Assembly (NCBI RefSeq): GCF_008807015.1
Contig: NZ_CP031700.1
Coordinates: 1,550,001-1,614,000 of the forward strand
Source: Neisseria zalophi
GTDB taxonomy: Bacteria > Pseudomonadota > Gammaproteobacteria > Burkholderiales > Neisseriaceae
Direction: 5' to 3'
DNA: 64,000 nt
In this document: positions 3,303 through 64,000 of the stretch, in pieces
How positions within the stretch are numbered: position 1 is the stretch's first letter
How the letters are laid out: each line of letters opens with the position of its first letter
Translations under genes and position numbers: made by a program
Notes under the pieces: generated by a model
Seen by the model: only the letters and a program-made list of their open reading frames with translations
What the model was told of the DNA's origin: nothing
The model's database searches: none

Positions 3303-3360
3303 ACTTTGCCGATACCCGACATAAAATATTAATAGTGTTTTAAAACAGCAAGGAGTTATC

Positions 3361-4314: not shown

Positions 4315-4498
4315 TGGATAGTTTGCATACCGTAATTAAATGGCCTCTTTATTAAAATATCACCATTTTAAAATCTTGTTTTATGCCAAAAAACTGGTGA
4401 TAATATTACGCTTTAAAAATAATCGACTGAAGTTTAATTCTAGCTCTACTATATCAAACTGTTATAACTCAAAAATTTAAAAAAGAAAGCACGAAACA

Positions 4499-5716
4499 AT
4501 GGCGTTAATCGTACAAAAATACGGTGGTACTTCAGTAGGTTCTGCCGAACGAATTAAAAATGTAGCCAACCGTGTTGCCAAAGCCCATGCCGAAGGGCAT
4601 GACGTAGTTGTGGTGGTCTCAGCCATGAGTGGTGAAACCAACCGTCTGGTAGCATTGGCACATGAAATGCAAGATTTCCCCGATCCACGTGAATTAGACG
4701 TGGTTCTTTCTACTGGCGAACAAGTGACTATCGGCTTATTGGCCATGGCTTTAAAAAATATCGGCGTACCGGCCAAAAGCTATACAGGCTGGCAAGTTGC
4801 CGTTAAAACCGACAATGCCCACACGAAATCCCGTATTGAAGAAATCGATGACGAAGCAATGCGAAGTGATTTGAAAGAAGGTAAAGTAGTTATCGTTGCC
4901 GGTTTCCAAGGTGTAAATAGTCAAGGTGATATCACCACATTAGGACGAGGTGGTTCCGATACTTCGGCCGTAGCTCTAGCTGCCGCATTGAAAGCGGATG
5001 AATGCCAAATTTACACCGACGTTGACGGTGTTTATACCACCGACCCACGTGTTGTTCCCGAAGCCCGCCGCCTTGACACGGTTACTTTTGAAGAAATGTT
5101 GGAATTGGCGAGTTTGGGCTCAAAAGTTTTACAGATCCGTTCGGTAGAATTTGCCGGTAAATACAAAGTACGCCTGCGCGTTTTAAGCAGCCTTCAGGAA
5201 GGCGGCGAAGGTACACTAATCACCTTTGAAGAGGATAATAATATGGAAAGAGCTGCCATCTCCGGTATTGCATTTGATAAAAACCAAGCACGTGTTAACG
5301 TACGCGGAGTTCCCGACAAACCAGGCGTTGCTTATCAAATTTTAGGTGCGGTTGCAGAAGCGAATATTGAAGTGGACATGATTATTCAAAATGTTGGTGC
5401 GGAAGGAACGACCGACTTCTCGTTTACCGTACCAAGAGGTGAATATAAACCGGTATTAGACCTTCTTAATGGTCTAAGAGACAGCATTGGTGCCGCTGAA
5501 ATAGATGGTGACGATACCGTATGTAAAGTTTCCATTGTTGGCTTGGGTATGCGCTCTCATGTTGGTGTTGCATCCAAAATGTTCCGCACACTGGCTGAAG
5601 AAGGTATCAATATTCAAATGATTTCCACATCCGAAATCAAAGTTTCCGTATTGATTGATGAAAAATATATGGAATTGGCTACCCGTGTGCTGCATAAAGC
5701 ATTTGATTTAGCTTAA
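4499..5716 (+). CDS. lysC: Aspartate kinase
   Basis: Phosphorylates aspartate, the first step towards lysine, meso-diaminopimelate, threonine and methionine. The 405-residue protein starts with the aspartokinase signature KYGGTSVGS (7-15). The kinase core follows, including GRGGSDTSAVALAAAL, with the TDVDGVYTTDPR loop. Two C-terminal ACT domains (about 265-405) normally mediate feedback inhibition by lysine and/or threonine. It is monofunctional, without a homoserine dehydrogenase domain. It is the last core gene before the accessory patch; its stop is followed by a DUS and then IS debris. Confidence 0.95.
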   Translation: MALIVQKYGGTSVGSAERIKNVANRVAKAHAEGHDVVVVVSAMSGETNRLVALAHEMQDFPDPRELDVVLSTGEQVTIGLLAMALKNIGVPAKSYTGWQVAVKTDNAHTKSRIEEIDDEAMRSDLKEGKVVIVAGFQGVNSQGDITTLGRGGSDTSAVALAAALKADECQIYTDVDGVYTTDPRVVPEARRLDTVTFEEMLELASLGSKVLQIRSVEFAGKYKVRLRVLSSLQEGGEGTLITFEEDNNMERAAISGIAFDKNQARVNVRGVPDKPGVAYQILGAVAEANIEVDMIIQNVGAEGTTDFSFTVPRGEYKPVLDLLNGLRDSIGAAEIDGDDTVCKVSIVGLGMRSHVGVASKMFRTLAEEGINIQMISTSEIKVSVLIDEKYMELATRVLHKAFDLA

Positions 5717-5755
5717 AGCCAAGTTTAATATTAAAAAACAAGGCCGTCTGAAAAT

Positions 5756-5845
5756 TGAACTGCACCCCAAAAGTTGGACTTCTCCAACCCATTAAGGTGC
5801 AGTTTTCTTATGAGCAAATATACATTCAAATTTAGAAAGTTTTTA
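5756..5845 (+). mobile_element. Left-end remnant of an IS3-family element
   Basis: The terminal repeat beginning TGAACTGCACCCCAAAAG and the first codons of the upstream transposase frame (ATGAGCAAATATACATT, start at 5810) match, in reverse, the end found at 16820-16900. Homology fades after about 5826, so only the first 70-90 bases of the element survive. It lies directly against the DUS after lysC. Confidence 0.8.
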
Positions 5846-6009
5846 GTTAGTTGTACATCTCTCAACACATTTTTATGCGTCAAATTTCGTTAATAGTATA
5901 TTTTTGTAAAGGTCTCTTCCAGCGCAAAAAATTTCAGCAGTTTTTCTGAGTAGATTTTCTTAATTTGCAACGAGTTATCTTCATCTTTTGAGTCTAACTT
6001 GTTTACTAA

Positions 6010-6210
6010 TCTACGTTAGCCCAAAATTCTATTATTCAGCAACTTGCTAACGAATTGAATACCACGGTTAGAGCCCCTAATCAATATTTATGGTATTACA
6101 GCAATGGGAAATTGGTCCCAATAGGTATGAAAACAGATGGGAGTCAAGATACCAATCAACCTGGAATTATGAGAAGTTTTAACCCACAAAAAATAAATAG
6201 ATACAAGTAA
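6010..6210 (+). pseudogene. Displaced C-terminal fragment of a polymorphic toxin
   Basis: Open frame of 66 codons without its own start, ending at the TAA at 6208. It contains QQLANELNTTVRAPNQYLWY and then a Lys/Gly-rich tail. Such an LANEL...APN..LW...G block is seen near the end of C-terminal toxin domains of Rhs/CdiA-type proteins. It sits 12 bases before a small secreted-protein gene in the immunity position. I interpret it as an orphan toxin tip left by cassette exchange; the toxin activity is not identified. Confidence 0.5.
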
Positions 6211-6222
6211 AAGGATTGTAAA

Positions 6223-6678
6223 ATGAAATATTTACTATTTTTACTGCTGATAAATATTACTTTTAATAGCGTATCTGCTCAAAACGAACACCAATTCTCA
6301 AATGACAAGGATACTATTAAAATGTCTACCCCTATATCAACTGGAAGTATCTATTTTTTAGATAAAAAAACACAAGTAAAATTGAAAAAACTAGCAGAAA
6401 AAGGAGATATCAATGCTGCCTTCCAACTATCTCAATACTTCACTTTAATTAATAAAAATAATGATGAAGCACTTAAATATTTACTTATTGGCGCCAGAAA
6501 TGGAGATGTACGTGCACAATACAGAGTTTCTCAGAGTTTTTTTAATAAGAAGTTATATAAAGAAGCTTTATTTTGGGCCCAGGAAGCTAAAAAAAACGGC
6601 ATTTCAAATTTAGACGAATTTATTGATCCGGATGAATTTATTGATGAAATAAAGTCAGAAATGAACAATCAAATATAG
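6223..6678 (+). CDS. Small exported Sel1-like protein, candidate immunity protein
   Basis: A 151-residue protein with a cleavable-looking signal peptide (hydrophobic 3-18, ending SVSAQ). After it comes a helical region with Sel1/TPR-like repeats: LKKLAEKGDINAAFQLSQYF, then YLLIGARNGDVRAQYRVSQSFF, then the ALFWAQEAKKNGI helix. It has low GC like the rest of the patch and a good AAAGGA ribosome site. Its place directly after a toxin C-terminal fragment is the usual place of an immunity gene, so protection against that toxin is inferred from context only. Sel1-like proteins also have many other roles. Confidence 0.6.
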   Translation: MKYLLFLLLINITFNSVSAQNEHQFSNDKDTIKMSTPISTGSIYFLDKKTQVKLKKLAEKGDINAAFQLSQYFTLINKNNDEALKYLLIGARNGDVRAQYRVSQSFFNKKLYKEALFWAQEAKKNGISNLDEFIDPDEFIDEIKSEMNNQI

Positions 6679-6745
6679 TTGTAAGCATAAATAAAAGAGT
6701 TAAATCAATCATTATATGTAGAAAATTGCTGTGTAGTTTACACAT

Positions 6746-6811
6746 TGGGTTGATAAAATAAGCCTCTAATACTTCAAAAGGCGTCAGCCCTTTAAGTGTT
6801 ACATATCGATC
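6746..6811 (-). mobile_element. Possible C-terminal scrap of a DDE transposase
   Basis: Read on the minus strand, this stretch encodes RYVTLKGLTPFEVLEAYF, resembling the very end of integrase-core transposases (R-Y-x-x-L...TP.E.LEA.F). No other part of such an element is visible. Tentative. Confidence 0.3.
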
Positions 6812-7398
6812 GTTACCGCCTCGACTACGACTGCCACCGCCAACCCCACTCTGCAAAACAACAGCAAACTAAACAATGTGTACGACAAAATCGGCAGACG
6901 CTTAAGCAAAGAAAGAACCGACAAAGACGCGTTACAATCCACCCATCCGAAGCGCACTCATTTTGTTTGGGATAGCAGCTGCCTGTTACAGGAATACATC
7001 TATAAAGGCAACTATACCTACATTTACACCGACCAAAATTCCTACGAACCTTTAGCACAGTTATTCTTTAACAATCAAGATGAGCAGCAATACCTAGCCT
7101 ATTTCCATAACGACAAAATCGGTATTCCTAGAGAAATGACAGGTCAGTTCGGTAATCTGTTATGGTATGGCAATACACCGCCTGGGGTAAACTTAATAAA
7201 GACGAACGGGTTTATCCACTCGTACATCAACTGTTTAGGCTTCAGAACCAGTATTGGGAACTATTATTGCTCATCAACAAATATTTTTTGGTAATCATAC
7301 AGCCACATCAGACCTTTCAAAAACTGAAAATTATGGTTGGTTTGATATATGAAGTAAAAGATGATAATTTATTAAGAGAAATCATTAATGAAAATTAG
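6802..7398 (+). pseudogene. rhs core fragment, frameshifted
   Basis: Remnant of an Rhs/YD-repeat polymorphic toxin. One frame gives YRLDYDCHRQP (about 6802-6850). A second (about 6850-7180) gives YDKIGRRLSKE, then FVWDSSCLLQEY, YTYIYTDQNSYEPLAQ and YLAYFHNDKIGIPREMT, the typical last YD repeats before the hypervariable tip. A third (7162 onward) gives YTAWGKLNKDERVYP and FRLQNQYWE. So there are probably two frameshifts. The usual G-L-x-Y-N-x-x-R-Y-Y-D-P / DPIGL core end is missing. A short foreign tail follows the break point. It cannot make an intact protein and is a decayed cassette donor or former rhs gene end. Confidence 0.75.
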
Positions 7399-7483
7399 AA
7401 AAATGATAAATATAGTTTATTTATAAGTAATTGCCAACAATGAGTAAATAAAGTAATGGAAGCATACAAAGTGGAGAGAAGCA

Positions 7484-8098
7484 ATGCTTATACTTATATT
7501 TGTATTATTAATAACTATTCTATTAATAATATATTTACTTAATAAAATATATTTTTTAATTATTATATTTTTATTGGCTATTGTTTTTGGTATTTTTTAC
7601 ACATCAAATTATAGAGATATAAATGGATTAACTTGGCTATTAATAGATGGTACAACTTATAAACAAAAAGTATCTAGTAACTTTAAATTCAAAAATAAAA
7701 ATTTAATAGCCATTGAATTCAATCGAAATATTATATATCAATTAAAATTTGAACTTTATCCATATAAATCAAATAAGAAAGATATTATAGAATTTGAAAA
7801 TATGATGAAACATATAAAAAATACAAAAATATATATGTATACAAAAAATTCTAATCAAATATATAAAAGTTTTCATCTGTATCAAAGTCAAAATACCTCA
7901 TGGAGTGCCGGGACAGTTATTTATCAAGATGACTCCCGTCAGCCATTTGTTATTGGTTTTGAATCTGAAAGTTTTTTTATACCACCCTCATTAAAACAAC
8001 AAAAAATTTATTTTAAGTTTGATATCAACAATAAAGAGGTATTAAATTATTTAAATAACAACAAAATAAAATTATCTATTATTCAAAAATCTTTATAG
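7484..8098 (+). CDS. Hypothetical membrane-anchored protein, candidate immunity protein
   Basis: A 204-residue protein of very AT-rich sequence. Two adjoining hydrophobic helices at the N-terminus (about 1-19 and 25-42) anchor it in the inner membrane. The remaining ~160 residues are polar and rich in Lys, Asn, Ile and Tyr, with the tract SWSAGTVIYQDDSRQPFVIG near 140-160. A GGAGAG ribosome site lies before the ATG. It follows the rhs pseudogene, so an immunity role is plausible by position, but no family was recognised. Confidence 0.5.
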   Translation: MLILIFVLLITILLIIYLLNKIYFLIIIFLLAIVFGIFYTSNYRDINGLTWLLIDGTTYKQKVSSNFKFKNKNLIAIEFNRNIIYQLKFELYPYKSNKKDIIEFENMMKHIKNTKIYMYTKNSNQIYKSFHLYQSQNTSWSAGTVIYQDDSRQPFVIGFESESFFIPPSLKQQKIYFKFDINNKEVLNYLNNNKIKLSIIQKSL

Positions 8099-8149
8099 TA
8101 GTTAATAAAAAACCTAAGCATAAAATCCTAAGGTAGTATACAGAACCAC

Positions 8150-8207
8150 AAGCACGTACGAGTTATCTCTCTCAAGGCAGTCTGAAACAAACCAACCCTT
8201 TCAGACG
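8150..8207 (+). repeat. Cassette-end degenerate repeat, copy A
   Basis: Core AAGCACGTACGAGTTATC followed by CTCTCAAGGCAGTCTGAAAC, which includes a one-base variant of the DUS. It is related to the copies at 8862-8925 and 9328-9392. Each copy lies just after a putative immunity gene. Confidence 0.55.
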
Positions 8208-8306
8208 GCCTCCTTTACAGCATTTACAACAGTACCGGCAGACCGTTTCAGCTAAACCTTCCATTCATCTGCCTCAACAACAGAGAGTATTCAAGCCATG
8301 CTTTAA
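8208..8306. other. Gene-free stretch with one DUS
   Basis: Contains one DUS in reverse orientation (8205-8217) and otherwise no open frame, repeat or RNA signal that I can support. It may be older cassette debris. Confidence 0.4.
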
Positions 8307-8444
8307 TATAAAATGCAAGATAGAGGAGTTATCCCTTATTTTATAGAAAACACAATTAAAACAGCTACCAAAAACCCTATTAGAGATGATTCAACCATTC
8401 ATTATGATAAAATCAACAAAATTATGGTAGTTACCAATAAATAA
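8307..8444 (+). pseudogene. Displaced toxin C-terminal fragment
   Basis: A short open frame with an ATG at 8313 and a stop at 8442. It encodes QDRGVIPYFIENTIKTATKN and then IHYDKINKIMVVTNK. The pattern RGI....VENTIK.G....YYD..N...V is common at the end of small RNase-like (RelE/colicin-fold) toxin tips of Rhs and related proteins. It precedes a small gene by 15 bases. It is probably an orphan toxin tip. The RNase assignment is tentative. Confidence 0.5.
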
Positions 8445-8459
8445 AAGATAAGGTTATAA

Positions 8460-8792
8460 TTGTTATACATAAAAGTAAATAATATGGTATTTGTTATAGA
8501 TAAATTTTTAACTGAAGCAAATAAAGCTAGTGAAAATCTTTTTTTATTTGCATCTTTTGTAAATAATACAGAATTTTTAATGAATTATATTGAGCGTAAA
8601 TATTTAAAAAATATTGACACAGATAAATATAAAAATTGCTGGGATGAGTTAGAAATTTTAAACGCATTAGCTTTGTCAGATTGGGAGGATGATGGAAAGC
8701 CTACTGACTGGCATAAGAAGTGGAAAAAATATTATCAAAAAGATGCAAAAAGTTTAATTTGTAATTTATTGAATATACTACATATGAATTAA
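8460..8792 (+). CDS. Small hypothetical protein, candidate immunity protein
   Basis: A 110-residue cytoplasmic protein without a signal peptide or membrane helix. The frame opens with TTG at 8460, about ten bases after a TAAGG ribosome site. An ATG at 8484 would give 102 residues (MVFVIDKFLT...). The middle is acidic (KNCWDELEILNALALSDWED), ending in a Trp/Lys-rich helix. It directly follows the toxin fragment at 8307-8444, in the immunity position. No named immunity family was recognised. Confidence 0.5.
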   Translation: MLYIKVNNMVFVIDKFLTEANKASENLFLFASFVNNTEFLMNYIERKYLKNIDTDKYKNCWDELEILNALALSDWEDDGKPTDWHKKWKKYYQKDAKSLICNLLNILHMN

Positions 8793-16471: not shown

Positions 16472-16508
16472 ATATATTGATTCGGTATATCAGGCCGTCT
16501 GAAAAAAG

Positions 16509-16900
16509 TGAACTGTCCCCCAAATCTTGGACAAACATAAAAGCCTTTTCAGGCGGCCTTTTCGAGCTGGGTTCTGTATGCCACAGGACTCAGCTTTTTC
16601 AATTTCAAACTACATCTGTCATGATTGTCGTACCGTATATAGTGTATCCATTGTCTGCATCAGCTCTGTTGTCGAAAGTTTGCCTTCCTGATAAAAGCAT
16701 TCCGTCTTCAGTATTGCAAAGAAGCTTTCCATCGGTGCATTGTCCCAGCAATTGCCTTTACGCGACATACTTTTCACTATACCGTGTTCCGCCAACGTGC
16801 GGCTGTACGGCTTGGTATTTAAAGTCTAATGTATATTTGCTCATGAGAAAACTGCACCTTAATGGGTTGGAGGAGTGTCCAACTTTTGGGGTGCAGTTCA
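16509..16900 (-). mobile_element. Internally deleted IS3-family element
   Basis: Both ends of the same IS are present (GTCCCCCAAATCTTGGAC at the low end, GTTGGACTTTTGGGG-type repeat at the high end), but only about 390 bases lie between them. On the minus strand the first transposase codons (ATGAGCAAATATACATT) are joined almost directly to codons from the end of orfB ([16 protein letters not shown]). No functional transposase remains. The orfB part matches the copy at 63280-64000 closely, so a full copy could mobilise this one in trans. Confidence 0.85.
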
Positions 16901-16954
16901 ATGTTCAAACGGCCTGCTTAAATATTGATATATTAAACAAACATATTCAAACTT

Positions 16955-17797
16955 TTAAAGCTGTTTTAAGCGGGCGATACGGTTGTCTAATGTGGGATGT
17001 GTACTGAGCAATGAATCCTTTGCTTCACTGGCAATACCCATAGCGGCCATTTCTTTAGGTAGATCACTGGCATTGCCTTTCAAACGTTGTAAAGCGGCAA
17101 TCATTTTCGGCGCCCCTACCAAACAGGCCGCACCTGCATCGGCGCGATATTCACGTTGGCGGCTGAACCACATCACAATAAAACTGGCTAAAAAGCCGAA
17201 TACTACTTGCAATACCATACTGACCATAAAATAAGTACCTTGTGAGGTACCGCCGCCCTCTGTACGTGCTACCATGCCTGAAACCACACGCGCCAAGAAC
17301 ACCACAAAAGTATTGACGACGCCTTGAATCAAGGTCAATGTCACCATATCACCATTGCCGACGTGTGCCATTTCATGTGCCAATACCGCTTCAACTTCAT
17401 CCCTTGTCATATGGTCGAGTAATCCGGTGCTGACGGCAACCAATGAATTATTTTTGCTGGCACCGGTCGCAAAGGCATTTGGTTCGGGTGAATGATAAAT
17501 AGCCACTTCGGGTGTTTTCAAATTCCATTGGCGGGCTTGGTTTTCAACTGTTTTTAATAACCACGCTTCGGTTTCATTGTGCGGTTGAGTAATCACTTCC
17601 GCACCAACCGAGCGTTTTGCCATGGTTTTGGACATCAATAAAGAAATAATGGAACCGGTAAAGCCGATTACTGCCGAATAAATCAGCAGGCTGACCATAT
17701 CATTGGGGTTTGCACTCACCCCGAGTATGCTCAGTACAATACCGATAACAACCAAAACCGCAATATTGGTCATTAAAAATAAAAAAATACGTTTCAC
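16955..17797 (-). CDS. htpX: Membrane protease HtpX
   Basis: Zinc metalloprotease of the M48 family in the inner membrane, which helps degrade misfolded membrane proteins under envelope stress. The 280-residue protein has two N-terminal membrane helices (about 4-26 and 33-54). The zinc motif HEMAH lies at 141-145, with a third ligand expected in the [10 protein letters not shown] stretch. Two more hydrophobic segments follow (about 155-175 and 190-215). The length and layout are those of HtpX. It diverges from glnD across a 330-base gap. No CpxR-type site could be recognised by eye. Confidence 0.94.
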
Positions 17798-29666: not shown

Positions 29667-32600
29667 ATGTCAATTGAAAATATAATAGTAGATTCTCATA
29701 CTCCCTACTCTAACAATCCTGATTCTCAAAATATATATTCTCAAGATAATAGAATTTATTGGAAATTACCTAGAGCTGAAAGTAATTTCTATAATTTGGA
29801 ACGTTTAGGTAAAAATATTTCGAGCGTACTCAAGAAATACAAACAACAATTTCCCGAGTTTGATCATAAAGATTATGAAGAAATTGCTACAGAATTTTGT
29901 GAACAATTCTTTCTTAATGACTTTGATGTCAATGTCTTTGCATATTTTTCAAATCTGTCTTTAAAAGATCAATCTGAAAAAAAGATAACTTTGGCGATTC
30001 GTATTCCTAATCATCCGATTTTTAATGAAAACCTATCTAAGAATATTGCTATTACAGTATTAGGACTCTGTCTTACTGATAAACCCAATCCAATTTTTAC
30101 GCCTCAAAGCATTGCTTTAACCTATGGAAAGCAAGGTCCTACTAATTATGAAAAAGAAAGTGAAGTACTTTTTCAAAAGCTTGATGAAGGAAAATTCCCT
30201 CCACGTAAAGCTAATAATGCTTTATCTTCTACTTTCTTAAAATCCTTACCAAAATTTGCAATAAGTGCGAAAGAACGCTTAGAAGCATGGAAAGAGTTTC
30301 TTATTTTTAAAGAAAATCTTATCAAACATAAAACACAAGGTGTTCGTTATTTAAAATGGAAGTTTCTTGAAAATTCTGAGCAATTAAAATTTGATGTAAT
30401 ATTTGAAAATCAGCAAGCCTTAAATTCTATAAAAAAAGCTTTTAGTCGACAAAATCTACATACTTTTGAGTTAAAAACATCTAGCGATCCTTATCGATTT
30501 ATTTTACCTAAAAATAATTCTAATAAATTAGATAATAGTTTTGGCAACTTTGGCCAGCTTGCCAATAATGGAATAAAAATTATTAAAAATAATAAACATC
30601 AATCCCATCACAAAGAAGAAGTAAGTTTTGATTTGGATACAGCAGTTTGGGCGGAACTTCTTGTTGATATATCAGAAGAGTTGAGCTACAAGCTCAGTCA
30701 AATTAATGAAGAGTTTATTGATGACAAAGAAAATGATAAGAAACTTGAAAAAATCAACAATCTTTTTAAAGCACTACCTGAAACAGGGTTTTTATCTATT
30801 TCCCTCATTGGTGATTTAGCTCTAATTGAACGTCATCGAAAAGCAGTAGAAAATTTAATACAAAATGAAAACTGCTATGCTCCTTATTTATCAAATTATC
30901 TATTTGATATTAAAAATGCCAATCAACCTGATCATATTCCTGAAATTACTGAATGGGAAAATAACACTCTAAACGATAAGCAGAAATCCGCCGTGCAAAA
31001 AATACTTGCCGCCCCTGATATTTGCTTAATCCAAGGGCCGCCCGGAACGGGAAAAACCACCGTAATTGCTGAGGCTTGTTTACAATTTGCCAAGCGAGGT
31101 GAAAAAGTATTATTAGCCAGCCAAGCACATGATGCTTTAGATAATGCCTTATCTCGTTTAAAAAATCATCCAAATCTAAAAGCTATCCGTTTATCTAAAA
31201 ATAACAATCGGATTTCAGATGAAGGTAAGGAGTTTACAGGTGAAAATGTATTAGCAAAACAATATACGGCTTTAAAAAACTATGTATCTGAAAAGTATCT
31301 ACTTCCCCAACAACAACTCCAAGAAAAAATCCACAAGCTTAAAGAGTGGTTGGAGCCTGCTCACTTTATAGTTGATGATAGAGAGAAACTACATATTCGA
31401 GATAAAGAACAGCAGAGGCAATTAGCTCAAACAGAAAAACAATTAGCCGAACTTAAAGAAGAATTTGAGCAAAAAAATAAAATTTTCAATCGCCAACAAC
31501 AAAATAATAGTAATTTAGAAAAATTAATTAATTTTTTGAAAAATGGTAATGATAGTATTGCTCAGTTAACTTTAGAAGTACCACAAGAAATTTTTTCTTT
31601 AGTAAAAAAACTATGTAACTTAGAAACAATAAAAATTGAACAGCAATATATCACTTTCAATATTTTTATGGATAGCCATGAAAATCAAATGGCTATTTTA
31701 CAAAATCTATATAAACGCTGGCTGTCAATCGACAACGCCATACCCCAAATGCAAGCAGATTTAGATCGAATTAGTCTTGGACAGGGCAAAACAGATATAA
31801 AAACAGTATTAAAACTTGAAGAATTAAAACAAGAAATTGATGAACTTGCAAAGAAAATAGATGATGATGACGATGATGGTAATCTTATAACATTATGGAA
31901 AAGTAAACGTAAAGAGTGTAGAGAATTAGAAAAAAGTATAAACTCAAACAATAAAATTAATAATCTAATTGGTGATTATTATAATTTATTTAGTGATAAA
32001 GATAACTTCTTAAATGGCAATAGTGATAATATAAAAATTTTATTGCAACAACGATTAGATAACATTATAAAAATAAAACAGGATATTGATTCTATTATAA
32101 ATAATACTATTGTTCAATTAAATCAACTTATAAAAATAGAAAATATAGAAAAGCCTAATGATGAAGAAATAAAACGACAAGAAACCATCGTAAAAAATAT
32201 AAAAAATGAACTAGAGAAAATTAAACAACAAATTAATAAAAAAAATAGTGAAGCCTCAGAATGGACTATAAAAGCAGAATTTGACAGCTCTATTGAATTT
32301 ACAAGTTTAGTTGAAGAGCAAAATCTTAATTTAAATAACTTACAAAATGAACTAAACAATATTCAACGGCAAAATAAAGATTTCCTACCTTTATTTAAAC
32401 AGTGGCAGGATATTCTAACAGATCCATTACAACGAGCAAAAGATGATTGGATTGAATTAGAACAAACTTATTTTGAAAGTTGTAATGTAGTGGCTATTTC
32501 TTGTAATGAAGATGAACGAACATTAACAAATAATAATTTTGATAGCTTTGATGTGGTTATTATTGATGAGGTCTCCAAAGCAACGCCTCTAGAATTACTA

Positions 32601-33656
32601 TTACCATTAATGCGCGCTCCAAAAGCAATTTTAGTAGGCGATCATCGTCAATTACCACCTATTTTCAACGAAGCTGACGGCTTGACTTTTGAAGATGAAG
32701 TTGAGAGGAATCAAGCGGATAAAGAAGAAGAAATAACAAATGTTAATACAGATGTCACCAAAGAGAATTTACGTAAATTTGAAAAGATGGTTACCGCTAG
32801 TTTGTTTAAAGAACTATTTGAGCAAGCACCTGAAAGCCTACGAGAACGATTAGATATTCAATTTCGCATGCATCCGGATATTATGAGGATGATTAATTAC
32901 TTTTATGAAAATAAATTAACTTGTGGAAATCCTGATTTACCGCGCCCACATAATTTAACTTTCATTACTGAAAATAATGATCGCCTTCTCAAAAAAGAAG
33001 ATCATCTTTTATGGGTTGATACTACAAATGATGAACATGGTAAAAAATATAAAATTGAGGATGGAGTTAATATTAATCGCCTTGAGGCCCGTCTAATAGC
33101 CAAGACTTTAATAGAAATTGATCGTCAAATACAAATAGAGGGTAAATATAATAAAGATAATAGGCTCAAAATAGGTGTGGTATCTTTTTATCAACCGCAA
33201 TGCCGTTTAATTCGTGACGAAATACGAAAAAATGTGCCAAATAAAAAAACATGGTTTACTGCTATTGATGTAGAAATTAATACAGTTATCCGTTATCAAG
33301 GTAAAGAAAAGCCAATTATTTTACTTAGCTTAGTTAAAAATAATGGCCGTGATCTCCATCAAAAATTTACGCGTGGTAGAGCTAATATCGCCCGTTTTGA
33401 ATTTATTAATGTAGCAATGAGTAGAGCTCAAAATCTATTAATAATATTTGGAGCAAGAAATATGCTAGAAAACAGAGAAGTAAAACTACCTAAAATGGAT
33501 GAACATAAGATTGAGAAAACAATGATCTATAAAAAAATGTTTAACTATTTAGAATATCAGGCAGATACTGGAAACTTAACTGAAACTCAACCTTTCTTTA
33601 ATGCTTTACAAAATACAATGAAAAAATTAAATGCTACAAAAGGGAATAACTCATGA
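29667..33656 (+). CDS. Large SF1 (DNA2/UPF1-like) helicase with coiled-coil insert
   Basis: A 1329-residue protein in the style of bacterial defence helicases. Residues 1-430 are an unrecognised N-terminal domain. A Q-motif-like LNDKQKSAVQKIL is followed by Walker A GPPGTGKT near 457-464. Residues about 530-910 are a long charged coiled coil inserted before motif II. Motif II is DEVSK (967-971), motif III GDHRQLPP (from 992), then QFRMHPDI (from 1065) and VAMSRAQN (1249-1256). It should use ATP to translocate on nucleic acid. It is first in the operon and overlaps the next gene by ATGA. No known defence family was matched with certainty. Confidence 0.85.
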   Translation: MSIENIIVDSHTPYSNNPDSQNIYSQDNRIYWKLPRAESNFYNLERLGKNISSVLKKYKQQFPEFDHKDYEEIATEFCEQFFLNDFDVNVFAYFSNLSLKDQSEKKITLAIRIPNHPIFNENLSKNIAITVLGLCLTDKPNPIFTPQSIALTYGKQGPTNYEKESEVLFQKLDEGKFPPRKANNALSSTFLKSLPKFAISAKERLEAWKEFLIFKENLIKHKTQGVRYLKWKFLENSEQLKFDVIFENQQALNSIKKAFSRQNLHTFELKTSSDPYRFILPKNNSNKLDNSFGNFGQLANNGIKIIKNNKHQSHHKEEVSFDLDTAVWAELLVDISEELSYKLSQINEEFIDDKENDKKLEKINNLFKALPETGFLSISLIGDLALIERHRKAVENLIQNENCYAPYLSNYLFDIKNANQPDHIPEITEWENNTLNDKQKSAVQKILAAPDICLIQGPPGTGKTTVIAEACLQFAKRGEKVLLASQAHDALDNALSRLKNHPNLKAIRLSKNNNRISDEGKEFTGENVLAKQYTALKNYVSEKYLLPQQQLQEKIHKLKEWLEPAHFIVDDREKLHIRDKEQQRQLAQTEKQLAELKEEFEQKNKIFNRQQQNNSNLEKLINFLKNGNDSIAQLTLEVPQEIFSLVKKLCNLETIKIEQQYITFNIFMDSHENQMAILQNLYKRWLSIDNAIPQMQADLDRISLGQGKTDIKTVLKLEELKQEIDELAKKIDDDDDDGNLITLWKSKRKECRELEKSINSNNKINNLIGDYYNLFSDKDNFLNGNSDNIKILLQQRLDNIIKIKQDIDSIINNTIVQLNQLIKIENIEKPNDEEIKRQETIVKNIKNELEKIKQQINKKNSEASEWTIKAEFDSSIEFTSLVEEQNLNLNNLQNELNNIQRQNKDFLPLFKQWQDILTDPLQRAKDDWIELEQTYFESCNVVAISCNEDERTLTNNNFDSFDVVIIDEVSKATPLELLLPLMRAPKAILVGDHRQLPPIFNEADGLTFEDEVERNQADKEEEITNVNTDVTKENLRKFEKMVTASLFKELFEQAPESLRERLDIQFRMHPDIMRMINYFYENKLTCGNPDLPRPHNLTFITENNDRLLKKEDHLLWVDTTNDEHGKKYKIEDGVNINRLEARLIAKTLIEIDRQIQIEGKYNKDNRLKIGVVSFYQPQCRLIRDEIRKNVPNKKTWFTAIDVEINTVIRYQGKEKPIILLSLVKNNGRDLHQKFTRGRANIARFEFINVAMSRAQNLLIIFGARNMLENREVKLPKMDEHKIEKTMIYKKMFNYLEYQADTGNLTETQPFFNALQNTMKKLNATKGNNS

Positions 33657-35671
33657 ATGAATACACACTAAGTCAACATTTTGTTGCATATCCAGTTTTT
33701 AATATCCGAGTAACTTATCGTTATCGTAAAGTTAGAAAACCTACTGTATTTGATAAGCTTATAATGAGTTTAGTTATGGACTTTCCACAGTTAAAGCAAA
33801 AATCATTAGGGGAAATTATTCAATCAATGCAGTTAGATGAGGTGTTTATTCGCAAGACTCTGGAAGATATGTTAGAAGCCGGATTGATTGAAGATATCGA
33901 TTTAGATAATGATCTAAACAATATTCAAATTGAAGAATTAATATTAACTAATCATGGTGAAAAATTTTTTAAAGAAAAAAAAATGATTAGCAGGAGAAAA
34001 TCAGCAAATGAAAATTTCTTTTTTAATCCTCTTATAAATGCTTATGAACAATTTCATAATATAAAAGATAATCAGATTGATATTAAATTAGATCATGAGC
34101 TTTTTACTCCGAATCAAGAGACTCTTACAAAACTTAGTATAAATAAAATGGCTGAGTTAAGTTGGGTTAAATCTGATATTGATCTCGAATCTAATGGCAT
34201 TGACAATAACATAGACATAGAACAAATTAAATGGAAAACAGCTAAAGTTAGTTTGGTATTAGATAATAACTATAATGTCACATTAAGATGTGATGATAAA
34301 TTATTTAAAAGCTGGTTAGATAATCGCTCATTGGATGTAATACATAATAAAATAATCAAACCAATTTTAGATAAAGCCGATAATATTATCGAACCTATTT
34401 TAAATAAAATAAAAATAGATAATTTAAATAACCTACTTTCTTTAGTGCTAGCGGATCAAAATACTGATTTAAAGCAATTAAAACAAACTGTACCAATTAA
34501 TTTTTCTAATGCACAAGAATTTAATAATCAAGCCCCTTATATCATACTCAATAATAATCATGATGAAGCAAAATTAAAGGATCAAATACTTAGTATTTCT
34601 TGTAATCAAGAATATGAAGAAACTATTACAAAAATATTCTGGGATCCATGTAGTTTCAATCTATTTTATGAGGAAATTGGTTATATTCCTGCATATTTTC
34701 ATCATCAAGAAATAAAATTGCCTGTACGTATTTTATCAAAAAATGAAAATAATCAGATAGCTGAGCTATCTGCATTAAATAATCCCAATTTCGATACTTT
34801 GGCTTTTATGGCCAATTATTTACCTTATAAGGAAATTATAGAAAAATTTCCTAAAATGGATATTTTAGAAGCTATATCATTTAAAGAACAATTTGAAAAA
34901 AATTGGAACAATAAAAAGTTTATTACAGGCTCTCCAGATATTTGGGCTGAAAAAATCAACTTACTAAATAATAATGACGAAATTGAAAAATTTACAAAAT
35001 TGTTTCCGAATATACCTTTAAGTTTATCAAAAATAAATGATAATTTACACAGCACACTAATAGATGAAGCATTTAAAAATCCAAAATCACAAATAGCTAA
35101 GACAGCTGAATTAAGCCATCTATTTAAACTAACCAATGAGTTATCTAAGTTTAATGATATAACTAGGATACAATTAAATTTAATTAACCAAGATACAATG
35201 AAAAAATTTATAGAATGGGAAAGTATAAAATTAGAGTTTAAACGTAAATATCCTAAAATTAATTCTATTGAATTAGATAAAAGAACACAAAATATAACTA
35301 ATTTTTATACAAAAATTAATGAGTTGTTTGAACCAATATCTCCCAATAAGAAATTTGCTGTATTAGATACAGACTTTATTCGAAAATATCCAGAAAAATT
35401 ATTTAATATTCAAAAGGATAGAATAGTTATTCTATCAAAAACAACGCTAGATGAATTAGATTATCAAAAAGAAAAAAGTCAAAAAGATATCTATGAAGCT
35501 AATAAAATTCTTAATAGCATTCAAACTGATAGTTTAGATCAAGAAATAAAGGATACTATAGAGGATATTGAAAATATTAATAATAAGATTAAAGAGTTTG
35601 AATCACAGATTCAAAACAAGCGATCAATTTTAGCATCATTAAAAAATCATAGCGAGAAAGAAAATGTCTAA
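33653..35671 (+). CDS. Unknown protein ending in the first half of a PIN nuclease domain
   Basis: A 672-residue protein. Residues 1-110 look like a winged-helix segment (DKLIMSLVMDFPQLKQ...LEDMLEAGLIEDI). The middle (110-560) is unrecognised. At 568-615 comes AVLDTDFIRKYPEKLF...ILSKTTLDELDYQK, the first half of a PhoH/Smg6-type PIN domain with acidic D572 and D574 and E601. A coiled coil then runs to the end. The second half of the PIN domain, with the other two acids, is in the next gene, which overlaps by eight bases. The pair likely forms one RNase in trans or by frameshift. Confidence 0.75.
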   Translation: MNEYTLSQHFVAYPVFNIRVTYRYRKVRKPTVFDKLIMSLVMDFPQLKQKSLGEIIQSMQLDEVFIRKTLEDMLEAGLIEDIDLDNDLNNIQIEELILTNHGEKFFKEKKMISRRKSANENFFFNPLINAYEQFHNIKDNQIDIKLDHELFTPNQETLTKLSINKMAELSWVKSDIDLESNGIDNNIDIEQIKWKTAKVSLVLDNNYNVTLRCDDKLFKSWLDNRSLDVIHNKIIKPILDKADNIIEPILNKIKIDNLNNLLSLVLADQNTDLKQLKQTVPINFSNAQEFNNQAPYIILNNNHDEAKLKDQILSISCNQEYEETITKIFWDPCSFNLFYEEIGYIPAYFHHQEIKLPVRILSKNENNQIAELSALNNPNFDTLAFMANYLPYKEIIEKFPKMDILEAISFKEQFEKNWNNKKFITGSPDIWAEKINLLNNNDEIEKFTKLFPNIPLSLSKINDNLHSTLIDEAFKNPKSQIAKTAELSHLFKLTNELSKFNDITRIQLNLINQDTMKKFIEWESIKLEFKRKYPKINSIELDKRTQNITNFYTKINELFEPISPNKKFAVLDTDFIRKYPEKLFNIQKDRIVILSKTTLDELDYQKEKSQKDIYEANKILNSIQTDSLDQEIKDTIEDIENINNKIKEFESQIQNKRSILASLKNHSEKENV

Positions 35672-36188
35672 GAAAAAAAGAAATAGAAATAAATTAAATC
35701 AAAATAACTCAACTCCATTAAACGTAAATGAAAATATAGCTATAAAACACAAGATACCAGAAATGGAAATGGAAATTTCAAAGTTAGAGCATGAAATTTC
35801 TAGTTTGCAAAATAAAATAGCTATGCTGAAAATTGAAAAAAACAATTTCAATAAAAAAAAGCAAGATGCAGAAAACAAACAAAAAAAACTACTCAAAGAC
35901 AAGAATCAACAACAACAACATATTGATTCCTTAAATAAGAAAGCTGCTGAAATCAGAGAGGCCATTCGAAAAATTGATGAATTAAAGTTGGCAACACACA
36001 CAGAAAACTCAAATTCTGAGTTACTAACAATACTACAACAATCAAATACTATGAAAACTCCAAATGGTGAAAACGATGACAAAACCTTAGCTGTAGCAGT
36101 ACGTTATAAATTAAACGATCTGATTTTTTATACAAATGATAAAAATTTAAAAAATAAGGCAACTAGTGTTGGTGTTAAAACTAGTTAA
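35664..36188 (+). CDS. Coiled-coil protein ending in the second half of a PIN domain
   Basis: A 174-residue protein. A basic N-terminus (KKKRNRNK) is followed by a long heptad-type coiled coil (about 30-115). The end carries NDDKTLAVAVRYKLNDLIFY then TNDKNLKNKATSVGVK. This is the C-terminal half of a PIN domain, with ND(D) at 137-139 and TND at 157-159 supplying the missing metal ligands. Alone it lacks the DTD and E positions, so it cannot be a full PIN nuclease. The start overlaps the upstream stop (ATGTCTAA), giving a +1 frame relation to that gene. Confidence 0.75.
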   Translation: MSKKKRNRNKLNQNNSTPLNVNENIAIKHKIPEMEMEISKLEHEISSLQNKIAMLKIEKNNFNKKKQDAENKQKKLLKDKNQQQQHIDSLNKKAAEIREAIRKIDELKLATHTENSNSELLTILQQSNTMKTPNGENDDKTLAVAVRYKLNDLIFYTNDKNLKNKATSVGVKTS

Positions 36189-36211
36189 TAAATAACCAAT
36201 AGGAATAAAAA

Positions 36212-37342
36212 ATGAGCGCAATTCATGAGAGACAATGGGCATTAGTTCGTGAACGTGAAATTCGAGAGGAAGCACATAAACAAAGATTAAAAGAAATTAA
36301 GAATCAAACTGAATTTTTTTTAAAAAAATATGAAAGCATATTAAATGAATTAGCAGAGGATGGACTAGAACAATATATTCCAAAAGAATGTGATCATGTA
36401 CGTAATGAAATTAATCGAATACGTAATAATATGGATGCTTTAGAAGGGCGGGAAGTCAGTCGTATTTTAGGCAATTTTGTTAGAACTCTACCACATCAAG
36501 CAAGAGAACAACATCGTATCGCTGAGGAATATCAACGATTAATACAAGAGGAAGCAAAATTAGAAGCTGAGCGGCAAGTAAAAAAAATACAAAAAGAACG
36601 TGAAATAATCTGGCAACAAGTTACATCCAATTGGCAAAACAAATTGGCTCGAAATTTGGCGTTTAAAAAACTTTATGAGCTAAAACAACAAGCCTTTTCT
36701 GAAAATTGGGATGGACAACAAATAACGGAAGCAGTTGATAAAATAAAACAAGAATCTGAACAACAAGCCATTGAAAATGAAAAAAATTTCATAAATGCAG
36801 TAAGAGGAGAAAATGAACAAAAACAAAAAGGTGAATTACTAAAAATAATTAAAACAACAAATTTACCAAAAGCGCAATCTACTCAATTGCAGCAGAAAAT
36901 CGAGCAAGCATCTGGTGAAAATTTAACTAAAATTGCCCAAGAAATTGATTTGGTACATGATGAAATTATAGAGAATGAAGACATCAGAAAAGAAATGGTA
37001 AAAGCTGTTTACCAAGCATTAAAACAAGCAGGATTTAATGTCCTCAACCCCATAAAACAAAAAAATGAAAATGGTGAGGAAATTGTTTTAGTTCAAGCTG
37101 CACGCCCTACCGGAAATCAAGCAAAATTTAGAATTAATTTAAATGGTTCAGTACGATATGAGTTTGATAACTATAAAGGTCAGCATTGTAAGGAAGATAT
37201 GCAAAAAGTTTTACCTAAGTTATCTGAAATTTATGGTGTAAATTTATCCAAAGAGCGAGTTATTTGGGAAAACCCAGATGATACAAAGATGGATGCAAAA
37301 CCAATTAACCCAATACAGACTAACAAAAATATAAAAAACTAA
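36212..37342 (+). CDS. Coiled-coil protein of the island, function unknown
   Basis: A 376-residue cytoplasmic protein, mostly charged helix (about 10-60, 100-190, 190-260). The small C-terminal domain (about 275-350) reads IVLVQAARPTGNQAKFRINL, then SVRYEFDNYKGQHCKEDMQK. The plan of beta strand, G-x-V-x-x-E, KG...C and a helix recalls the small DUF2997-like proteins that can occur beside AAA and 4Fe-4S genes, but this is a weak resemblance. An AGGAATA ribosome site lies before the ATG. It likely forms a scaffold with the neighbours. Confidence 0.65.
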   Translation: MSAIHERQWALVREREIREEAHKQRLKEIKNQTEFFLKKYESILNELAEDGLEQYIPKECDHVRNEINRIRNNMDALEGREVSRILGNFVRTLPHQAREQHRIAEEYQRLIQEEAKLEAERQVKKIQKEREIIWQQVTSNWQNKLARNLAFKKLYELKQQAFSENWDGQQITEAVDKIKQESEQQAIENEKNFINAVRGENEQKQKGELLKIIKTTNLPKAQSTQLQQKIEQASGENLTKIAQEIDLVHDEIIENEDIRKEMVKAVYQALKQAGFNVLNPIKQKNENGEEIVLVQAARPTGNQAKFRINLNGSVRYEFDNYKGQHCKEDMQKVLPKLSEIYGVNLSKERVIWENPDDTKMDAKPINPIQTNKNIKN

Positions 37343-37358
37343 TAATTAGAGACAAAAG

Positions 37359-39182
37359 ATGAATGAATATATTAGTAGTTGGCTAGAAAACTTTGAACGT
37401 CAAGTAATGATACGTCGTGCATTGATTATTAGTGGTAATATCATCGATTTTTCATTTAATCGTTATAACCGTTTGGTTCCTATTAATCAAGCAATAACAG
37501 ATAGTTTAAAAGCACAAGGATTTTCACATGTGGTCTTTTATTCTCGTTTATCTGGCGTATCAGGAGTTTCCACTGATGAGTGGAATAATCTTACACAAGC
37601 CATAATACAAGCTGAAGAAGGGGAAGACTATGATATAGAAAATATAGACAGCCCTACTTTATCTAATAATGCCCCAATAAGTACAGAAGATTTTTTTGCT
37701 ACTGTACAACAAGTGATGACTAATGATTCAAAGAAAGTTGCTTTTGTTGTTGATTGGTCTAATTATTTATTTGGGCAAGTAAATGCATTAAGTGACGCAG
37801 AAAGAGCTTGGTTACAACAAATCTCTACAAGTTTACGCGATGCAGAGCAACCTAATTCTCCAGAAGCAATGGATAACCCACAAAGTATATTAATATTTCT
37901 TTGCTCAGGAAATATATCTTTACCTCCATCTATTTATTTAAATAATCCATTATTTGCTGAAATTAGTATCCCTCTGCCAACTATGCAAGAACGTGAGGAA
38001 GCAATTTTAGCTAAACAATATCATTTTAATTTACAAGAAACGTTAGATCGTGGAAGTAAAGCGCTAGCGGATTTTGTAACCTTAACGGATACACTTACAT
38101 TACGAGATATTGATAATCTTGTTCGTTTATCTCGTCAACAACGGTCTCCTTTGATTTTACAAAACCTGATTTCTCTTTATCGTTATGGTAAACGTCAATC
38201 TCCTTGGGAAAAGCTTAATTATAAACGCTTGAAAGAAGCAAAAAATATACTGGAGCACCGTGTAAAAGGACAAGAACACGCAATTGACGCAGTAAATAAA
38301 ATATTAATTCGTGCATATACTGGTTTATCAGGTTTACAACACTCTACCAAAGCCCGTACACCCAAAGGCACATTATTTTTTGTTGGCCCAACCGGCGTTG
38401 GTAAAACAGAATTGGCAAAATCATTAGCACAATTTTTATTCGGAGACGAAGATGCTTGTATCCGTTTTGATATGTCAGAATTTAATCATGAACATGCAGA
38501 TCAAAGATTAATTGGTGCTCCTCCTGGGTATGTTGGATTTGAAGAAGGAGGACAATTAACTAATGCGGTTAAAGCCCGCCCCTTTTCTTTATTATTATTT
38601 GATGAAATTGAAAAAGCACACCCGCGTATTCTCGATAAATTTTTACAAATTTTAGAAGATGGTCGGCTAACTGATGGTAAAGGAGAAACTATTTCTTTTG
38701 CCGATACTTTCATTGTATTTACTTCTAATATTGGTGCATCAGAAGTTCAACCAGGAGAGCCTCAAAGTGTTGCAGAACAATTTAAACAATTGGTACAAGA
38801 ACACTTTAGAAATAAACTTAACCGCCCCGAACTACTAGGTAGAATTGGAGAAGCAAATATTATTCCATTTAATTTCATACAAGATACTAATGTACTTAAA
38901 TCTATTGCCAGAGCCAAACTACAACCATTAAATGAGCGCTTAAAAGAAAAATGGAATATTGATAGCCTTGAATTTGAAGATGAAGACCGGGCATTAGAAT
39001 CTTTGGTAAGTCAGGTGAACCAACAACATGGTGGACGAGGAGTATTAAATGTATTAACTAAGTCATTATTTGATCCACTAGCAGAGTTTCTATTTGAGGA
39101 AAGTGAAAATCCTCAACCATTATATGGAAAAACACTCTATGTAGTACAAGCAGGGAAAACTTTTGATTTTGAAATTAAATAA
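37359..39182 (+). CDS. ClpB-like AAA+ ATPase with degenerate first module
   Basis: A 607-residue protein. The C-terminal AAA+ domain is of the Clp/Hsp100 D2 type: Walker A GPTGVGKT (343-350), FDMSEFNHEHADQRLIGAPP, pore-loop-like GYVGFEEGG, Walker B LLFDEIEKAHP (D415, E416), sensor FIVFTSNIGA, and a C-terminal lid. Residues 1-290 look like a second AAA module that has lost Walker A: ALIISGNIIDF at the P-loop place, VAFVVDWSN at the B place, and a lid-like helix bundle with IPLPTMQEREEAIL. It likely remodels protein or nucleoprotein complexes together with the operon partners. Not a normal ClpB, since the Clp-N domain is absent. Confidence 0.8.
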   Translation: MNEYISSWLENFERQVMIRRALIISGNIIDFSFNRYNRLVPINQAITDSLKAQGFSHVVFYSRLSGVSGVSTDEWNNLTQAIIQAEEGEDYDIENIDSPTLSNNAPISTEDFFATVQQVMTNDSKKVAFVVDWSNYLFGQVNALSDAERAWLQQISTSLRDAEQPNSPEAMDNPQSILIFLCSGNISLPPSIYLNNPLFAEISIPLPTMQEREEAILAKQYHFNLQETLDRGSKALADFVTLTDTLTLRDIDNLVRLSRQQRSPLILQNLISLYRYGKRQSPWEKLNYKRLKEAKNILEHRVKGQEHAIDAVNKILIRAYTGLSGLQHSTKARTPKGTLFFVGPTGVGKTELAKSLAQFLFGDEDACIRFDMSEFNHEHADQRLIGAPPGYVGFEEGGQLTNAVKARPFSLLLFDEIEKAHPRILDKFLQILEDGRLTDGKGETISFADTFIVFTSNIGASEVQPGEPQSVAEQFKQLVQEHFRNKLNRPELLGRIGEANIIPFNFIQDTNVLKSIARAKLQPLNERLKEKWNIDSLEFEDEDRALESLVSQVNQQHGGRGVLNVLTKSLFDPLAEFLFEESENPQPLYGKTLYVVQAGKTFDFEIK

Positions 39183-39191
39183 GGTAAACAA

Positions 39192-39776
39192 ATGCACTGG
39201 TTAAACATTGCTAAAATATTAGCAGCAACCGAAGCAGAAGGGCCAGGATTACGATTTGTAATTTGGGTGCAAGGGTGTTTAAAACGCTGTATCGGTTGTT
39301 GTAATGGAGATTTGTTAAAAATAAAACCTGTACATATATGTCGTTCAAATGAAATTATAATGAAATTAATAGAATCTAAAAAACAATATCCTTTAGAAGG
39401 ATTAACTTTCTTAGGTGGAGAGCCAATGCTACAAGCTGATGGTTTGGCAGATATAGCTGAAGCAGCTCAGAATCTAGGATTATCAGTTATTTGTTTTTCA
39501 GGCTATCAAAAATATGAGTTAATTGAAGAACAATTCATAGGTTCTCAAAGATTATTAGCTGCTACTGATTTGTTAATTACAGGAGAGTTCGACCAAACAA
39601 AAACTGAAACCATTAGAAATTGGGTAGGTTCTACTAATCAACAATTCCATTATTTGACAGATCGTTATAATGTTGAAATTGAGACAAGACCATTAACTGT
39701 AACCAATGAATGGCGAATTAATTTAGATAATAAAATTGTTGGAAATGGATTACCATTTGAAATAACTATGAAATAA
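39192..39776 (+). CDS. Radical-SAM activase-like protein (4Fe-4S single cluster)
   Basis: A 194-residue protein with GLRFVIWVQGCLKRCIGCCN: the CxxxCxxC cluster ligands are C29, C33 and C36, set in the W-x-Q-G-C context of NrdG-type activating enzymes. GGEP (about 76-79) is the SAM-binding motif. It should cleave S-adenosylmethionine to make a 5'-deoxyadenosyl radical. Yet no glycyl-radical enzyme is encoded in the operon, so the target is unknown. It follows the AAA+ gene by nine bases and is the last gene of the island. Confidence 0.85.
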   Translation: MHWLNIAKILAATEAEGPGLRFVIWVQGCLKRCIGCCNGDLLKIKPVHICRSNEIIMKLIESKKQYPLEGLTFLGGEPMLQADGLADIAEAAQNLGLSVICFSGYQKYELIEEQFIGSQRLLAATDLLITGEFDQTKTETIRNWVGSTNQQFHYLTDRYNVEIETRPLTVTNEWRINLDNKIVGNGLPFEITMK

Positions 39777-39814: not shown

Positions 39815-39852
39815 AAAATAAGGCTGTCTCAAAATTCAGATAGCCTTATTTT
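39815..39852. terminator. Terminator at the right edge of the island
   Basis: AAAATAAGGCT and AGCCTTATTTT pair, extended by TCT/AGA. A and T runs flank it, so it can serve both the island and the minus-strand ssb. The arms resemble a decayed inverted DUS pair. Confidence 0.8.
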
Positions 39853-63279: not shown

Positions 63280-64000
63280 TGACCCCCAAATCTTGGACAA
63301 ACATAAAAGCCTTTTCAGGCTGCCTTTTCGAGCTGGGTTCTGTATGCCACAGGACTCAGCTTTTTCAATTTCAAACTACATCTGTCATGATTGTAGTATC
63401 GTATATAGTCATCTATTGTCTGCATCAGCTCTGTTGTCGAAACTTTGCCTTCCTGATAAAAGCATTCCGTCTTCAGTATCGCAAAGAAGCTTTCCATCGG
63501 TGCATTGTCCCAACAATTGCCTTTACGCGACATACTTTTCACTATGCCGTGTTCTGCCAACGTGCGGCGGTAGGCTTCCGTACGGTACAGCACACCTTGA
63601 TCGGAATGCAGCAGCACTTTATCTGCCTTTGTCAGTTTGCAGACCGCATCATTCAGCATTCTTTCCACCATCTCGCTGTTCGGGCGGCGGCTCATCGCAT
63701 AAGCGACGATTTCGCGGTTAAATACATCCAATATCGGTGACAGATACAGTTTGCCATTGCTGCACTTGAATTCGGTGGCATCCGTCAGCCATTTCTCATT
63801 GGGCTTTTGCGCCTCAAAGCGGCGGTTCAGAATATTATCCGACGGTTCGCCCATTGCCGGATGGCGGTAGGCTTTTTTCGGACGCACTTTGGCTTTCAAT
63901 TGCAACAGTTTCATCAAACGGATAACCTTTTTCTTATTCCATGACAAAGTGGCGGCAATCCGCCTGTATCCGTAACGCCCTTGATGGCGGGCATAAACTT
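63280..64000 (-). mobile_element. IS3-family element, cut by the window end
   Basis: The right end starts TGACCCCCAAATCTTGGAC at 63280, about 13 bases after a DUS. It contains the transposase frame below and runs out of the window. Sequence from 63300 to 63570 is nearly the same as 16530-16800 in the deleted copy. Confidence 0.9.
63315..64000 (-). CDS. IS3-family transposase OrfB, partial
   Basis: The reading frame is open up to the window edge; upstream of the TTG at 63947 it continues in frame as YARHQGRYGYRRIAATL, the normal lead of OrfB, so the true start lies outside. The DDE triad is visible: first Asp in KWLTDATEFKC, second in LLHSDQGVLY, Glu in [16 protein letters not shown]. The end RCSLKLKKLSPVAYRTQL is typical of the IS150-like group. 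It appears intact here and could mobilise the deleted copy at 16509-16900. Confidence 0.92.
   Translation of the reverse strand, partial: VYARHQGRYGYRRIAATLSWNKKKVIRLMKLLQLKAKVRPKKAYRHPAMGEPSDNILNRRFEAQKPNEKWLTDATEFKCSNGKLYLSPILDVFNREIVAYAMSRRPNSEMVERMLNDAVCKLTKADKVLLHSDQGVLYRTEAYRRTLAEHGIVKSMSRKGNCWDNAPMESFFAILKTECFYQEGKVSTTELMQTIDDYIRYYNHDRCSLKLKKLSPVAYRTQLEKAA

What the first reader, a model, noticed from the sequence alone, without database searches (positions are those of the whole stretch)
35363..36188. A PIN nuclease domain split between two overlapping genes
The end of the 672-residue protein carries AVLDTDFIRKYPE (D572, D574) and LDELDYQK (E601), the first half of a PhoH/Smg6-type PIN domain. 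The next gene, overlapping by eight bases, ends with NDDKTLAVAV (D138/D139) and TNDKNLKNKA (D159), the second half. The four acidic positions are thus divided 2 + 2. Each half is joined to a coiled coil on the cut side, so the halves could assemble in trans. The alternatives are a +1 programmed frameshift at GTC-TAA-G or a mutation that broke one gene. A PIN fold with a coiled-coil hairpin inserted between its halves is unusual in either case.
Basis: partly seen in the sequence, partly recalled or inferred. Interest (0 to 1): 0.88.

Follow-up and report, generated by a model that had tools for sequence, protein, structure and literature searches.

The report
Nuclease split across two overlapping genes
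In a defence-like gene cluster of a Neisseriaceae genome, the RNA-cutting (PIN) enzyme that 26 related clusters make as one protein is written as two overlapping genes, cut near the tip of a coiled-coil stalk found only here; it could be a two-part enzyme that reassembles, or a gene that broke recently.

Summary
Gene 2 (672 aa) ends with the first half of an SMG6/EST1A-type PIN domain and gene 3 (174 aa, overlapping by 8 nt) ends with the second half. A family model scores gene 3 at 57 bits and gene 2 at 29; the best of 2000 shuffles reaches 12. The four conserved acids divide 2+2: D572 and E601 in gene 2, D138 and D159 in gene 3. The operon is an AT-rich island: UPF1/DNA2-type helicase, PIN protein, unknown protein, ClpB-like AAA, NrdG-like radical SAM. 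I found it in about 30 other genomes or plasmids. In the 26 where this domain is intact, the PIN is one uninterrupted ORF without any coiled coil, so both the ~150-residue insert and the split are peculiar to this genome. A read-through AlphaFold model gives one PIN fold with an antiparallel coiled-coil hairpin; the split lies near its tip. Codon usage switches frame at the junction, gene 3 has a Shine-Dalgarno-like site like its neighbours', and 176 of 176 comparable core genes are unbroken. I judge two coupled chains that reassemble (0.5) somewhat likelier than a recent frameshift (0.3), an assembly error (0.1) or recoding (0.07). One genome cannot settle it.

The parts
29667..33656 (+). g1: UPF1/DNA2/IGHMBP2-type SF1 helicase, 1329 aa, with a coiled-coil insert; first gene of the operon
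   Evidence: AAA_11 3e-38, AAA_12 1e-33; MkoA-like 1e-97 over its C-terminal helicase part; PDB DNA2 1e-21, SMUBP-2 9e-21, UPF1 3e-14
33653..35671 (+). g2: 672 aa; winged-helix-like N-terminal part, then the first half of an SMG6-type PIN (D572, E601) and the first coiled-coil arm
   Evidence: weak MarR-like fold of the N-terminal part
35477..35668 (+). g2 coiled-coil arm, first part of the lineage-specific insert
   Evidence: codon model +21.6 in the g2 frame, -21.6 and -15.5 in the others; 0 of the off-frame null segments reach it; helix 99-151 of the model
35664..35671 (+). ATGTCTAA overlap: start of g3 and stop of g2
   Evidence: Shine-Dalgarno-like energy -3.5, in the range of g1, g4, g5 and g6
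35664..36188 (+). g3: 174 aa; Lys/Asn-rich N-terminus, second coiled-coil arm, second half of the PIN (D138, D159)
35643..35668 (+). stretch open in both the g2 and g3 frames, where the two frames must have been joined if the gene was ever continuous; short A runs lie in or at the edge of it
   Evidence: stop positions in three frames; codon usage favours a switch at its 3' end by about 4 log units over its 5' end
36212..37342 (+). g4: 376 aa conserved coiled-coil-rich protein of unknown function
   Evidence: present in each complete relative operon; no family or PDB match
37359..39182 (+). g5: ClpB-type AAA ATPase with its own N-terminal domain
   Evidence: AAA_2 6e-51; ClpB C-terminal part 5e-80
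39192..39776 (+). g6: NrdG/activase-like 4Fe-4S radical SAM protein
   Evidence: Fer4_12 7.5e-29; NrdG 1e-23

Best explanation
This is a horizontally acquired defence-like operon whose SMG6-type PIN ribonuclease subunit is made here as two chains. A ~150-residue antiparallel coiled-coil hairpin was inserted into the loop between the conserved 'DELD..K' helix and the next helix of the PIN fold (shown by comparison). The gene then became divided near the tip of that hairpin (shown; the order of events is inferred). Gene 3 is probably translated by coupled re-initiation at the ATGTCTAA overlap (inferred). The two arms pair, bring D572/E601 together with D138/D159, and rebuild one two-metal PIN active site (inferred). 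By its neighbours the nuclease probably cuts RNA handed over by the UPF1/DNA2-type helicase, under control of the ClpB-like ATPase and the radical SAM protein (inferred from family knowledge).
For: Both halves match one PIN model far above chance. The read-through region folds as a single PIN with a coiled-coil hairpin (mean pLDDT 88, pTM 0.65): helices 99-151 and 162-251, low-confidence tip 152-161, split at residue 143. Foldseek finds Nob1 and EST1A PIN domains and stalk-type coiled coils. Codon usage marks both arms as genuine coding sequence, each in its own frame, with the best switch at 35676-35697, next to the actual junction. Gene 3's start site is as good as those of the other operon genes. 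A random one-base shift in the operon's intact genes leaves an ATG within 12 nt of the new stop with such a site in 1.9% of positions, and one overlapping the stop in 0 of 8494. The other operon genes are open over full length.
Against: All 26 intact relatives, including the nearest (Anaerobiospirillum, Acinetobacter), have one uninterrupted gene. The split is known from one genome, with no second strain. The model was made of a single chain with both halves in each alignment row, so assembly was built in. The re-initiation argument was made after seeing the site.
Confidence: 0.5

Rival explanations
1. A recent frameshift broke one continuous PIN gene that carried the coiled-coil insert. The system is inactive here, or works only because the break happens to fall in the hairpin.
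For: One continuous gene is the rule in the family. A-rich DNA with many short A runs is prone to slips. Only one split case is known. A fresh break would leave all codon-usage signals intact, so one search does not exclude it. A degenerate relative exists: Helicobacter suis L030, whose PIN has decayed and whose helicase is not one ORF.
Against: The break falls at the hairpin tip and not in the rest of the protein, creates an overlapping start with a fair ribosome site, and no other gene of the operon is broken.
Confidence: 0.3
2. The split is a sequencing or assembly error at a short A run, and the real gene is continuous with a coiled-coil insert.
For: The operon is 25-34% G+C with about 50 runs of six or more equal bases, and one wrong run would suffice.
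Against: 176 of 176 core genes that could be compared with a relative are in one frame, none split. All other runs in the operon agree with open frames. Codon usage places the switch at the 3' end of the possible stretch, about 4 log units better than at the longest run.
Confidence: 0.1
3. Recoding: a +1 ribosomal frameshift or transcriptional slippage makes a fused protein, in part or in full.
For: The frames differ by +1 and overlap in 35643-35668 with short A runs.
Against: No stable RNA structure, no recognisable slippery codon at GTC-TAA-G, and no sign of recoding in any relative.
Confidence: 0.07

Closest known systems
SMG6/EST1A PIN domain (PF13638 PIN_4)
   Same: Same fold and the same four acids in order: D1251, E1282, D1353, D1392 in SMG6 (PMC12923823); D572, E601 | D138, D159 here.
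   Different: SMG6's PIN is one chain without a long coiled-coil insert; here it is divided between two genes within such an insert.
SMG5-SMG6 composite PIN (cPIN)
   Same: One PIN active site completed in trans by a second polypeptide, next to a UPF1-type helicase (PMC12923823).
   Different: There two complete paralogous PIN folds sit side by side and SMG5 adds one Asp; here each gene would supply half of one fold.
XPG/FEN1-type PIN-like nucleases (from general knowledge, not tested)
   Same: N and I halves of the nuclease core are separated by an inserted helical segment, which is long in XPG.
   Different: One chain, other subfamily, mainly DNA substrates.
Mokosh defence system (MkoA/MkoB)
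   Same: g1's helicase part matches MkoA (E 1e-97) and g2's N-terminal part weakly matches MkoB (E 1e-9).
   Different: No kinase domain was found in g1; the relatives' g2 proteins give no MkoB match; PIN, ClpB-like AAA and radical SAM proteins are present.
The same operon in Acinetobacter, Photobacterium, Moellerella, Polaromonas, Vibrio, Comamonadaceae and others
   Same: Same gene order (helicase, PIN, unknown, AAA, radical SAM).
   Different: PIN gene continuous and without insert.

Membership tests
SMG6-type PIN (PF13638) | Profile match to the family over the whole domain | tested here: met
   Gene 2 and gene 3 together cover positions 2-128 of PIN_4; the read-through region scores 36.7 bits in two pieces against a cut-off of 21.9
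SMG6-type PIN (PF13638) | Four conserved acidic residues | tested here: met
   D572, E601, D138 and D159 align with the invariant columns of the family
SMG6-type PIN (PF13638) | Domain in one polypeptide | tested here: not met
   Stop at 35669-35671 between the halves; other frame after it
SMG6-type PIN (PF13638) | Metal-dependent ribonuclease activity | not testable with these tools
   Needs purified protein
Five-gene helicase-PIN-unknown-AAA-radical SAM operon | Same gene order and families | tested here: met
   nested in the tree of g5 next to Anaerobiospirillum (96/88) within a starred clade with Acinetobacter
Mokosh type I | MkoA helicase fused to a kinase | tested here: not met
   Helicase part matches MkoA, no kinase domain in g1
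Mokosh type I | MkoB partner | tested here: inconclusive
   E 1e-9 for the g2 N-terminal part only; no match for g2 of three relatives
SMG5-SMG6-like composite PIN | Active site completed by a second chain | tested here: inconclusive
   Acids divided 2+2 between two ORFs; assembly in trans not modelled or measured
Programmed +1 frameshift gene | Slippery site with stimulator | tested here: not met
   No stable structure (z +1.28); no prfB-like Shine-Dalgarno element seen at the GTC-TAA stop

The most novel reading that the evidence does not exclude
A natural two-chain PIN nuclease: one SMG6-type fold cut near the tip of an inserted coiled-coil stalk, each gene carrying two of the four metal ligands, so that activity depends on assembly of the two chains and can be controlled by it.
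Probability: 0.45. Interest if true: 0.75.

Novelty: new variant of a known kind. Interest (0 to 1): 0.5.

Why it matters
PIN domains are among the commonest ribonuclease folds, and I found no report of one divided between two genes in the papers held here. If the split works, it is a ready-made split nuclease whose activity needs assembly, a useful model for how such enzymes are kept off until needed. It also draws attention to a widespread and apparently undescribed operon that pairs a UPF1-type helicase with an SMG6-type PIN, the same pair that drives nonsense-mediated decay in animals. If the split is a recent break instead, it is an ordinary case of a defence island decaying.

Tried and rejected
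A single-protein scan of genome contigs with gene 2 found nothing, and a first alignment of the AAA protein was too diverse for that scan; a closer alignment worked. Viral contigs and phages hold no relative, nor do E. coli genomes at DNA level. No relative occurs in 82 other genomes of the family, so no close copy exists for selection tests. Idea that A-rich DNA merely mimics a coiled coil in any frame: rejected, because the codon model strongly prefers one frame on each side. Programmed frameshift: no features. A viral fold search gave only coiled-coil matches. Eight further loci with related AAA proteins added one more continuous PIN gene (L143) and otherwise other gene arrangements.

Full report
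What is there. The two ORFs are as described: gene 2 at 33653-35671 (672 aa) and gene 3 at 35664-36188 (174 aa), overlapping in ATGTCTAA, frames differing by +1. Pfam PIN_4 matches the end of gene 2 at profile positions 2-103 and the end of gene 3 at 45-128. Against a PIN profile built from the same operon in other bacteria, gene 3 scores 57.2 bits and gene 2 28.6 bits; 2000 shuffled controls reach at most 12 bits and no other window ORF is near. tblastn of gene 3 alone finds only the C-terminal PIN half of the homologous gene on Moellerella plasmids. The PIN is of the SMG6/EST1A type (2dok, E 8e-13). The conserved acids are D572 and E601 in gene 2 and D138 and D159 in gene 3. These correspond in order to D1251, E1282, D1353 and D1392 of human SMG6 (numbers from PMC12923823).

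The surroundings. The genes lie in an operon at 29667-39776 with 25-34% G+C between neighbours of about 51%, i.e. an acquired island. Its order is: UPF1/DNA2/IGHMBP2-type helicase, PIN protein in two ORFs, a conserved unknown protein, a ClpB-type AAA ATPase, and an NrdG-like 4Fe-4S radical SAM protein. None of the 82 other genomes of the family has it. It occurs on plasmids of Acinetobacter, Photobacterium, Moellerella, Polaromonas and Leisingera and in 24 further loci from genome sequences. In a tree of the AAA protein the window's copy is sister to Anaerobiospirillum (96/88) within a starred clade with Acinetobacter; Helicobacter suis joins them with less support (94/90).

The comparison. 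In every relative where the PIN is intact (26 loci, one of them found after the profile was built) it lies in one ORF, aligned without interruption. Between the 'DELD..K' motif and the 'AR.AI' helix the relatives have roughly 15-20 residues; the window has about 165. So the insert and the split are both derived in this lineage. Helicobacter suis (L030) has a degenerate PIN and no full-length helicase ORF, so loss does occur in this family.

The shape. The region was read through both frames in one step and modelled with 20 relatives as alignment: mean pLDDT 88, pTM 0.65. It has the PIN core strands and helices on both sides, a helix 99-151, a low-confidence tip 152-161 and a helix 162-251. The division (residue 143) is within about ten residues of the tip. 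Foldseek against the PDB returns the Nob1 and EST1A PIN domains and stalk-like coiled coils such as dynein and SMC. The model is of one chain and cannot prove assembly of two.

Is the split real and kept? Assembly quality: of 280 relative ORFs with a match in 1.2 Mb of the genome plus the window, 176 matched well and over at least 90% in one frame, and none was split. Coding signal: with stop codons ignored, codon usage learned from the rest of the operon prefers the gene 2 frame for the gene 2 arm (+21.6 against -21.6 and -15.5) and the gene 3 frame afterwards, with the best switch at 35676-35697. Within the stretch where both frames are open, a switch at the 3' end is favoured by about 4 log units over the longest A run. 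Start site: gene 3's ribosome-site energy (-3.5) lies among those of the other operon genes (-2.9 to -4.6), and 13.5% of other ATGs are as good. Simulated one-base shifts through the intact genes give an ATG within 12 nt of the new stop in 8.4% of positions, with a comparable ribosome site in 1.9%, and overlapping the stop in 0 of 8494. These points favour a functioning two-gene arrangement, but they were tested after the site was seen, and a very recent break would also leave the codon signal.

Mechanism. Shown: the halves, the acids, the insert, the overlap. Inferred: coupled translation, pairing of the arms, one rebuilt two-metal site. By analogy with UPF1-SMG6 the helicase and nuclease probably act on RNA; the ClpB-like ATPase and radical SAM protein may remodel or modify a partner. 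No direct evidence on function or defence was obtained.

Known and new. Composite PIN sites exist: SMG5 completes the SMG6 site with one aspartate (PMC12923823), but there two whole PIN folds cooperate. I found no report of one PIN fold divided between two genes, though the library holds only part of the literature. The operon resembles Mokosh in its helicase only and lacks the defining kinase fusion. Verdict: a real and unusual architecture seen in a single genome. Functional split 0.5, recent frameshift 0.3, assembly error 0.1, recoding 0.07.

Noticed in passing
29667-39776 and L004-L033: A widespread, apparently undescribed operon: UPF1/DNA2-type helicase, SMG6-type PIN protein, unknown coiled-coil protein, ClpB-like AAA, NrdG-like radical SAM. 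It pairs the two core activities of nonsense-mediated decay and sits on plasmids and islands.
   Followed up: partly
L018 (Lentisphaerae MAG), L006, L015-L026: Near-identical copies of the operon's AAA gene in distant bacteria (end branches 0.01-0.04), pointing to very recent horizontal spread or MAG contamination.
   Followed up: no
L030 (Helicobacter suis), 3062-8655: The same operon with a degenerate PIN active site and a helicase that is not one full-length ORF, apparently decaying.
   Followed up: partly
39815-39852: Inverted repeat with an A/T-rich flank just after the last gene, likely the operon's terminator.
   Followed up: no
33653-35236 (g2 N-terminal part): Weakly MarR-like winged-helix prediction and a weak MkoB match not shared by the relatives tested, so the role of this 530-residue part is open.
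   Followed up: partly
16477-17007 and 63293-63947: Two stretches with similar translations, one overlapping a transposase ORF; probably copies or remnants of one insertion sequence.
   Followed up: no
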